Assembly (NCBI GenBank): GCA_019112735.1
Contig: DXIS01000024.1
Location: 1-38,469 of the forward strand
Origin: Candidatus Mediterraneibacter guildfordensis
GTDB lineage: Bacteria > Bacillota > Clostridia > Lachnospirales > Lachnospiraceae
Direction of reading: 5' to 3'
Length of the DNA: 38,469 nucleotides
The notes beneath the pieces are model-generated. The model did no database searches. It was not told where the DNA came from and worked only from the letters and a program-made list of their open reading frames with translations. Shown here one piece after another: positions 8,991 through 9,315 of this stretch (position 1 is the first letter of the stretch; every line of letters begins with the position of its first letter). The position numbers and the translations under genes were made by a program.

Positions 8991-9315
8991 GACAGGCGTA
9001 TGGAAAGCAGGTATTCAGAACGTTCTCCATGCAAATATTTTACGCGGCGTATCGCTGCATTATTGATTGAGTTAGAAGCTCAAATTTTATAAGTTGGTTA
9101 CTTTATAACCCTGGTGTGCCTTCCGCATACACAACTTGTGAAACGGTCAATAAGAGTAGTAAAAGTAAAAATATTTGCTATATAGACTCTACGTTCAATA
9201 TCTGTTTTATCTGAAAATCTTCCTCCTGGATACGGGGAGGGGATCACAGCGCGATATTTTCACAGGCCGGATGCGGATGCATCCGGTCTGTTTTTGTATG
9301 ATGGAGGAAATGAAA
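8991..9315 (+). promoter_or_regulatory. Long structured leader RNA of the polyamine operon, candidate riboswitch or attenuator
   Basis: There is no gene in this stretch. Helices visible in order are: 8998-9004 with 9026-9032 (7 bp); 9044-9049 with 9053-9058 (GCGGCG/CGCTGC); 9067-9071 with 9079-9083 (TTGAG/CTCAA); and a compact three-way junction. The junction has P1 9089-9096 with 9132-9139 (8 bp), P2 9097-9100 with 9106-9109 and P3 9114-9119 with 9125-9130, joined by CCTG and a single A. Then comes 9212-9218 with 9256-9262 (TGAAAAT/ATTTTCA), directly abutting the terminator at 9263. Such an aptamer-plus-terminator order is typical of a transcriptional riboswitch. No T-box signature and no known aptamer core was recognised. 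The ligand is unknown; arginine, agmatine, putrescine or spermidine would make biological sense. Confidence 0.6.
9263..9295 (+). terminator. Leader terminator (attenuator) before speA
   Basis: A 12-bp stem, CAGGCCGGATGC (9263-9274) with GCATCCGGTCTG (9279-9290), has a GGAT loop and is followed by TTTTT. It ends 7 nt before the speA ribosome site, with no gene upstream that it could serve except the leader itself. Confidence 0.85.

What the first reader, a model, noticed from the sequence alone, without database searches (positions are those of the whole stretch)
8991..9315. Long structured leader with terminator: candidate unrecognised riboswitch for polyamine synthesis
A good promoter starts a transcript that runs about 320 nt without a gene, folds into several helices including a compact three-way junction (9089-9139), and ends in a 12-bp intrinsic terminator placed 7 nt before the speA ribosome site. 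That layout has one obvious use: premature termination controlled by the leader. The T-box bulge sequence and the cores of the common metabolite riboswitches are not visible. The operon makes spermidine from arginine and aspartate semialdehyde, so an arginine, agmatine, putrescine or spermidine sensor would be logical. I cannot identify the antiterminator with confidence.
Basis: partly seen in the sequence, partly recalled or inferred. Interest (0 to 1): 0.72.

Follow-up and report, generated by a model that had tools for sequence, protein, structure and literature searches.

The report
Widespread RNA switch before polyamine operons
The stretch before this gut bacterium's spermidine-making operon encodes a large, strongly conserved, knotted RNA that sits before polyamine-making or polyamine-import genes across many Bacillota and looks like a switch that stops transcription when polyamine is plentiful; the RNA database searched lists only a 54-base fragment of it, as a small RNA of streptococci.

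Summary
In detail: a ~300-nt structured leader ends in a 13-bp terminator just before speA. The window has no Rfam hit, but 12 of 14 relatives that I scanned match RF02440 ("SpF59 sRNA, ldcC RNA"), a 54-nt model. It covers one arm, absent here, of a ~190-220-nt RNA whose body (window ~9031-9190) lies beside all 17 RF02440 hits of a 398-genome phylum search. In 178 of 179 distinct leaders that could be judged, speA, speD, carboxyspermidine dehydrogenase (CASDH) or potA follows; 174 of 178 have a terminator. Most helices covary, including a pseudoknot. The missing antiterminator was found: the terminator's 5' arm pairs with the 3' strands of helices P5/P7 (-12.6 kcal/mol; 423 other terminators -6.9; 0 of 5000 permutations reach it in thinned sets). 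Aptamer and antiterminator exclude each other, so ligand should stop transcription; the gene set points to spermidine. No ligand was tested. I judge it a large, barely described riboswitch-class candidate, unlike the published spermidine riboswitch (a SAM-I variant). Against it: folding energies favour the OFF state in the window even without ligand, and one core subtype pairs worse with its own terminator arms than with others.

The parts
8962..8990 (+). probable promoter: -35 TTGAAT, 17-nt spacer, extended -10 TGT-TAATAT
   Evidence: by eye, 8 of 12 consensus positions; not found by the 9-of-12 scan; promoter-like boxes at the same place in relatives (by eye)
9000..9030 (+). PX hairpin (9000-9004 with 9026-9030) near the 5' end of the RNA; its loop also pairs with the segment after P8 (P0)
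   Evidence: PX: (27 double-changed cells, shuffles 17.5, 1 of 200 as high; only 67% of cells paired). P0: (-18.2 kcal/mol in the window; 98 of 148 loci pair better with their own partner than with swapped ones)
9031..9039 (+). P1 5' strand GCAAATATT, pseudoknot helix with 9170-9178
   Evidence: own -6.96, swapped -4.61 kcal/mol, 89 of 99
9044..9058 (+). P2 hairpin (9044-9048 with 9054-9058); in most relatives the RF02440 arm sits just before it and is absent here
   Evidence: 61 double-changed cells, shuffles 26.3; arm
9060..9153 (+). P3 (9060-9068 with 9145-9153), enclosing P4 and P5-P7
   Evidence: 98% of cells paired in 90 sequences but almost invariant, no double change
9069..9081 (+). 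P4 hairpin (9069-9073 with 9077-9081)
   Evidence: 4 of 5 pairs with double change; 9 cells, shuffles 0.7
9085..9143 (+). P5 (9085-9094 with 9134-9143) closing the P5/P6/P7 three-way junction
   Evidence: 94-96% paired, nearly invariant; MFE fold
9096..9110 (+). P6 hairpin
   Evidence: 18 double-changed cells, shuffles 3.6
9114..9130 (+). P7 hairpin
   Evidence: 36 double-changed cells, shuffles 15.4
9154..9189 (+). P8 (9154-9157 with 9186-9189); its loop holds the P1 3' strand 9170-9178
   Evidence: 94-98% paired, mostly invariant
9121..9144 (+). antiterminator 5' partner: 3' strands of P7 and P5
   Evidence: window -13.0 kcal/mol with 9257-9274
9257..9274 (+). antiterminator 3' partner = 5' arm of the terminator and 5 nt before it
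9262..9295 (+). intrinsic terminator: 13-bp stem 9262-9291 and T-run 9291-9295
   Evidence: terminator found in 174 of 178 distinct related leaders with a gene
9303..9307 (+). Shine-Dalgarno GGAGG of speA
   Evidence: sequence
9316..10770 (+). speA, Orn/Lys/Arg decarboxylase (in-frame ATG also at 9310)
   Evidence: PF01276 E 4.8e-70, given as 9313-10770
10798..11688 (+). speE, spermidine synthase
   Evidence: TIGR00417 over cut-off
11685..12563 (+). speB, agmatinase
   Evidence: TIGR01230 over cut-off
12591..13793 (+). carboxy(nor)spermidine synthase / CASDH
   Evidence: NF043000 E 2.5e-125, below its cut-off
13768..14949 (+). nspC, carboxynorspermidine decarboxylase
   Evidence: TIGR01047 over cut-off

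Best explanation
A cis-acting transcription-terminating OFF riboswitch that senses a polyamine, most likely spermidine. Transcription starts near 8999. The RNA folds into a pseudoknotted aptamer: PX, P1, P2, P3 enclosing P4 and P5-P7, and P8, with the P1 3' strand in the P8 loop. With ligand bound, P5/P7 stay closed, the terminator's 5' arm is free, the terminator at 9262-9291 forms and the operon is off. Without ligand, the terminator's 5' arm invades the 3' strands of P7/P5 to make an antiterminator, and speA-speE-speB-CASDH-nspC is transcribed. Shown by sequence: the conserved RNA, most helices, the pseudoknot, terminator, antiterminator complementarity and gene context. Inferred: the start site, direct ligand binding, the OFF direction, and the ligand's identity.
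For: Leader found by blastn in 70 of 299 family genomes at E <= 2e-7 (my count from its table) and, with covariance model R1, in 24 of 398 phylum genomes and 40 of 291 class genomes, the window's own counted each time. Gene context: 205 loci were collected, 8 lack the loose core pattern, and the other 197 are 184 distinct leaders. Of the 184, the nearest polyamine reference gene on the same strand within 1.5 kb is speA in 86, speD in 55, CASDH in 30, potA in 7; 6 have none, 5 of them with under 300 nt of contig left (raw 91, 55, 36, 7, 8 of 197). All 23 other R1 hits of the phylum search also precede speA, speD or CASDH. Gene names checked on examples: SpeD, PotA-D, CASDH, NspC. Terminator in 174 of 178 distinct leaders with a gene (raw 184 of 189). 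Covariation. Antiterminator: own -12.6 kcal/mol, swapped -10.5, shuffled -6.7, 3' arm -6.4, 423 other terminators of the same loci -6.9; a tile scan peaks at the P5/P7 3' strand; 0 of 5000 permutations reach the observed mean in thinned sets of 18, 47, 92 and 138. Spermidine: the compound best shared by SpeA/SpeD routes, CASDH-NspC and PotABCD under OFF logic (inference from pathway knowledge).
Against: No ligand or expression data. Nearest-neighbour folding of the window leader puts the antiterminator state 11-13 kcal/mol above the free fold, and partition functions give no antiterminator pairs, so switching would need co-transcriptional kinetics or is not captured by the model. P3, P5 and P8 are too invariant to be proven by covariation. 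Leaders whose core has GCGTCA before CTTG (5) pair worse with their own arms (-7.7) than with those of other classes (-10.5), and the CATCAT class (13) hardly better (-10.8 against -10.0). The variable 16 nt alone show no clear co-variation in the smaller thinned sets (1480, 491 and 527 of 5000 at n = 18, 47, 92). L248 and L250 lack the P3 and P5 5' strands by eye yet keep the rest. One leader (L068) precedes an M28 peptidase gene. Relatedness of the sequences inflates every shuffle test. Polyamines bind RNA unspecifically.
Confidence: 0.7

Rival explanations
1. Same attenuator, but the aptamer binds another pathway metabolite (putrescine, agmatine, arginine, lysine or decarboxylated SAM).
For: speA, the commonest gene (86 of 184 distinct leaders), acts upstream of putrescine; the published spermidine riboswitch also sits before ldcC (PMC10853860, passages).
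Against: CASDH-nspC (CASDH first in 30 leaders) consumes putrescine, and potABCD (named on L200) imports polyamines; putrescine, agmatine or arginine feedback would not fit all four contexts under OFF logic (inference).
Confidence: 0.15
2. A leader bound by a regulatory protein instead of a small molecule; the protein stabilises the terminating fold.
For: Nothing here excludes a protein; very high sequence conservation would fit a protein site too.
Against: An elaborate pseudoknotted RNA with the same core in genera that I recall as Clostridia, Bacilli and Negativicutes (record titles). Genes upstream of the leader were not identified and no search for a partner protein was made.
Confidence: 0.1
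3. Ribosome-mediated attenuation through a leader peptide, as at speF or odc1.
For: Such polyamine attenuators exist elsewhere (odc1 uORF motif, PMC8632094, passages; speF mechanism recalled).
Against: Spacing between conserved anchors is nearly even over all three frames (71/59/55, 68/53/53, 59/55/54), and an SD-preceded uORF of 8 or more codons lies in -150..+80 of the core in 10 of 192 leaders.
Confidence: 0.02
4. An independent trans-acting sRNA that merely lies before the operon, as Rfam and pneumococcal lists have it (SpF59, srn235).
For: RF02440 is typed 'Gene; sRNA'; pneumococcal papers list F59/srn235/Spd_sr49 among sRNAs (PMC3395615, PMC12323649, PMC4387999, table passages).
Against: 178 of 179 distinct leaders that could be judged precede a polyamine gene, in four contexts that share only the pathway; the terminator arm is complementary to the core, as an attenuator needs. 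A terminated leader would look like a short sRNA in RNA-seq.
Confidence: 0.03

Closest known systems
Rfam RF02440, SpF59_sRNA (ldcC RNA)
   Same: Its 54-nt consensus is the optional 5' arm of this RNA; in all 17 hits of the phylum search the core follows (in L091 chiefly its 3' half).
   Different: The window lacks that arm; the RF02440 model has 54 positions and no core, pseudoknot, terminator or switch, and is typed as a small RNA.
Spermidine riboswitch (SAM-I variant), PMC10853860
   Same: Before polyamine genes; an OFF switch by transcription termination in the published case (passages and one section).
   Different: No SAM family among the six Rfam matches of the window leader at E<=10; different architecture; its authors call its distribution narrow.
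odc1 uORF motif (PMC8632094) and speF motif
   Same: Polyamine-gene leaders.
   Different: odc1 incorporates a uORF; no conserved reading frame here. Neither name is among the Rfam matches of the window leader; whether odc1 is in Rfam was not checked.
T-box leaders
   Same: Long leader, terminator and antiterminator.
   Different: No T-box match.

Membership tests
RF02440 SpF59_sRNA | match to the 54-nt covariance model over its gathering score | tested here: not met
   window: no match, none at E<=10; 12 of 14 relatives that I chose do match
RF02440 SpF59_sRNA | shared RNA beyond the model (core directly 3' of the arm) | tested here: met
   17 of 17 phylum hits; arm pattern GGACAG in 130 of 178 distinct leaders with 200 nt upstream
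RF02440 SpF59_sRNA | sequence of the streptococcal type member contains the core | not tested
   no named streptococcal sequence was fetched; only the family name, the Lactococcus lactis control hit and table coordinates in papers
riboswitch (general) | conserved structured leader with covariation | tested here: met
riboswitch (general) | expression platform with mutually exclusive structures | tested here: met
   complementarity shown; energetics unfavourable in the window
riboswitch (general) | direct, selective ligand binding that changes expression | not testable with these tools
   needs bench work
spermidine riboswitch (SAM-I variant) | SAM-I four-stem fold | tested here: not met
   no SAM family among matches at E<=10; the variant's own consensus was not available as a model
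T-box | T-box covariance model | tested here: not met
leader-peptide attenuator (speF/odc1 type) | conserved translated uORF | tested here: not met

The most novel reading that the evidence does not exclude
A second, structurally unrelated and much more widespread class of spermidine-sensing riboswitch: a ~190-220-nt pseudoknotted RNA with an optional RF02440 arm that controls spermidine synthesis (SpeA, SpeD, CASDH-NspC) and polyamine import (PotABCD) across Bacillota, and of which the pneumococcal 'small RNA' SpF59/srn235 is the terminated leader.
Probability: 0.5. Interest if true: 0.87.

Novelty: new variant of a known kind. Interest (0 to 1): 0.78.

Why it matters
Polyamine sensing by RNA was long doubted; one narrow class is published and its authors say it seems certain that further classes remain to be discovered (PMC10853860, concluding section). 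This would be a broad one, with both synthesis and import under one RNA, in gut commensals, Paenibacillus, Bacillus and others. It would also turn a catalogued 'sRNA' into a leader, and it gives exact, compensable base pairs to test.

Tried and rejected
Considered and rejected: T-box and other families in Rfam; leader peptide; an extra helix TGCC/GGCA between arm and P2 (no excess over shuffles: 140 and 127 of 200 as high); a duplicate leader in L114 (one of its two pattern hits is spurious). RNAalifold on the first crude alignment gave only two helices.

Corrections to my own steps: the first P1 test used a sentinel energy for 'no duplex', so its means are meaningless; redone. The first forced antiterminator was off by one base; redone. 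The first structure string was unbalanced because P5 and P6 shared a base; mended and used. In alignment A1 P2 and P7 are badly registered (42% and 60% of cells paired), on 90 arm-bearing sequences, gives 80% and 76%. My first terminator finder found 101 of 189; the looser one 184, and a few of its picks (such as L023, L058, L066, L091) look doubtful.

Rows dropped before counts: 8 of 205 loci lacked the loose core pattern. Beyond the 30 loci that one search gave, I fetched 40 regions of its further matches; G025 and G012 were left out. For A1, 62 references passed the length and score filter and I gave 58, leaving out L027, L031, L046 and L092. For one search, 90 of 109 arm-bearing leaders after a crude 93% identity filter, from 142 with the arm pattern. 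For one search, 99 distinct of 112. For one search, 177 distinct of 184; its 423 comparison terminators come only from the named-collection loci and had to pass a stricter energy limit. Shuffled arms there keep only base composition.

Literature: the 10 answered searches were. 'SpF59' gave two papers on other subjects by title (not opened), RF02440 and the ldcC/speA motif terms none, polyamine-riboswitch terms six, of which only PMC10853860 has such terms in its title. Passages by term were seen in PMC10853860 (also one section), PMC8632094, PMC2864571, PMC11477304, PMC5872165 and, in tables, PMC3395615, PMC12323649, PMC4387999; term look-ups in PMC11109978, PMC6429828 and PMC9971707 gave no occurrences. 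Supplements were not read. The 224-motif paper is not held. So 'not described as a leader or riboswitch' is limited to this open library and these terms.

Full report
WHAT IS THERE. Between an upstream ORF that ends at 8926 (carB by its place after carA, which name) and speA (start ATG 9316), the window carries a leader that folds far better than its shuffles (z -6.5) and ends in a 13-bp terminator at 9262-9291 followed by TTTTT, 7 nt before the Shine-Dalgarno sequence. The operon is speA-speE-agmatinase-carboxyspermidine dehydrogenase (CASDH)-nspC. The closest named relatives that I saw are Mediterraneibacter loci (L131, L139, L166; speA 88-93% identical), so the genome is probably of that genus (Lachnospiraceae).

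RFAM. The window has no match at gathering score and only six chance-level ones at E<=10. Of 14 relatives that I chose, mostly for their extra insert, 12 match RF02440, 'Streptococcus sRNA SpF59 (ldcC RNA)'. RF02440 is 54 nt, one hairpin arm. A phylum search with it hit 17 of 398 genomes, and Lactococcus lactis alone of 14 control genomes; in 17 of 17 the core found in the window follows (in L091 chiefly its 3' half). So RF02440 is a fragment of a larger RNA, and the window has a form without it. In the window's genus 13 leaders of other genomes lack the arm and 1 (L226) has it; of 178 distinct leaders with enough sequence, 130 have the arm pattern.

DISTRIBUTION. Blastn with the leader: 70 of 299 family genomes at E<=2e-7, own included (counted by me). 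Covariance model R1, built on 58 sequences: 24 of 398 phylum genomes, 18 of 267 genera; 40 of 291 class genomes, 32 of 181 genera; 14 of 18 genus-mates and 0 of 12 genomes of other families of the order. The window's own genome has one copy. The two large searches used strict filters that lose weak matches.

GENE CONTEXT. 205 loci were collected; 8 lack the loose core pattern; the other 197 are 184 distinct leaders. I searched 1.5 kb downstream, same strand, with seven polyamine proteins. Nearest gene among the 184: speA 86, speD 55, CASDH 30, potA 7, none 6. Five of the six have under 300 nt of contig left; the sixth, L068, is a true exception, before an M28 peptidase. That is 178 of the 179 that could be judged. 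A small gene in between is not excluded by this test, but the median distance from the core to the start is 241 nt (repeats included; longest 835, L066). Names were checked on examples by NCBIfam: SpeD, PotA and NspC over a cut-off; PotB, PotC, PotD and CASDH below theirs. In genus-mate L218 the leader stands before potA. All 23 non-own R1 hits of the phylum search precede speA, speD or CASDH; 17 of these genomes are those.

STRUCTURE. From the alignments I drew PX, P1, the arm (R1-R3), P2, P3, P4, P5, P6, P7, P8. On 90 arm-bearing sequences, double-changed cells against 200 shuffles were: R1 33 against 9.7, R2 104 against 31.6, R3 16 against 3.2, P1 45 against 25.6, P2 61 against 26.3, P4 9 against 0.7, P6 18 against 3.6, P7 36 against 15.4 (none of 200 as high); PX 27 against 17.5 and P8 4 against 0.8 (1 of 200); P3 0 and P5 3 against 1.0 (13 of 200), both nearly invariant. 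Shuffles ignore relatedness, and PX, P1 and P7 are only 67-77% paired there, partly from poor register. On A1, 57 distinct rows and 44 pairs: 85.5% of cells paired (84.5% shuffled), slid controls 30-45%, covariation score 0.095 against 0.080 shuffled, 0 of 500; 16 pairs with a double change against 10.4, 2 of 500. P1 is a pseudoknot: its 3' strand lies in the loop of P8. Own P1 duplex -6.96 kcal/mol, swapped -4.61, 89 of 99 better than swapped. A further long-range pairing, P0, between the PX loop and the stretch after P8 is moderately supported (own -10.07, swapped -7.75, 98 of 148, but only 23 of 42 in leaders without the arm; window -18.2).

SWITCH. A terminator lies between core and gene in 174 of 178 distinct leaders (raw 184 of 189). 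Its 5' arm plus 5 nt pairs with the 3' strands of P7 and P5: mean -12.6 kcal/mol over 177 distinct pairs, against -10.5 with arms of other loci, -6.7 shuffled arms, -6.4 3' arms, and -6.9 for 423 other terminators in the same loci (Mann-Whitney 6e-36); own better than swapped in 128 of 177; a scan along the leader peaks at this strand. Relatedness inflates such numbers, so I thinned the set: with 18, 47, 92 and 138 loci, 0 of 5000 permutations reached the observed mean; the variable 16 nt alone are not significant at 18, 47 and 92 (1480, 491 and 527 of 5000) but are at 138 (14 of 5000). By core class, six of the eight commonest classes pair better with their own arms by 1 kcal/mol or more, CATCAT by 0.8, and GCGTCA (5 loci) worse (-7.7 against -10.5). 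In the window the pairing is CUUGUGAAA with UUUCACAGG plus GCAU with AUGC, -13.0 kcal/mol. Since it opens P5 and P7, aptamer and antiterminator exclude each other, hence OFF with ligand (inference). Against: plain folding gives -63.0 for the antiterminator state and -76.1 free with the RNA ending at 9274.

NOT A LEADER PEPTIDE. Spacers between conserved anchors fall nearly evenly in all three frames, and 10 of 192 leaders have an SD-preceded uORF of 8 or more codons around the core.

KNOWN BEFORE. Pneumococcal lists hold the locus among sRNAs: F59 at TIGR4 869510-869591 between SP0915 and SP0916 (PMC3395615, table); srn235/F59/Spd_sr49 at 869478-869804, matched in 385 genomes of 385 strains (PMC12323649, table); F59 with 'Lung' (PMC4387999, table). 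I did not fetch that sequence, so identity with our RNA rests on Rfam's family name. The published spermidine riboswitch is a SAM-I variant (PMC10853860, passages and one section). My searches of the held library found no report of this RNA as a leader or riboswitch.

VERDICT. An attenuating RNA switch of polyamine genes: very likely. Riboswitch sensing a polyamine: about 0.7. Ligand spermidine: about even odds. Novel as an architecture and a class; partly catalogued as a fragment.

Noticed in passing
L248 and L250 (genomes G517, G492), about 1500-1700: A reduced form by eye: the arm and P2-P6 are gone, but the P1 strands and a stretch like CTTGTGAA..AATAAGAGTAGTAAAAGTAAAATATTTGCTATATAGACTC remain before speD; it may mark the minimal sensing core.
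   Followed up: partly
L066, core at 546 and 936: Two copies of the leader core about 390 nt apart before the same speD gene.
   Followed up: no
L068, leader with an M28-peptidase gene downstream: The only leader with enough sequence that is not followed by a polyamine gene; it also lacks P6 and most of P7.
   Followed up: partly
L031, L046 (5' part of the core): Extra sequence, roughly 35-85 nt by eye, lies between P3 and P4, a natural insertion site.
   Followed up: no
L040, L043, L045, L048, L049 and similar Lachnospiraceae leaders: A subtype with core CATCATCTTGTG instead of CAACTTGTG often has a different 3' part (P8 unclear) and terminator arms such as GCAGATGATG that match the changed core by eye; the class statistic is weak.
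   Followed up: partly
L019, 1598-1774: A Clostridiales-1 RNA (RF01699) between speD and speA, inside the spe operon.
   Followed up: no
window 9310-9316: Two in-frame ATGs; spacing to GGAGG and relatives favour 9316 as the speA start.
   Followed up: partly
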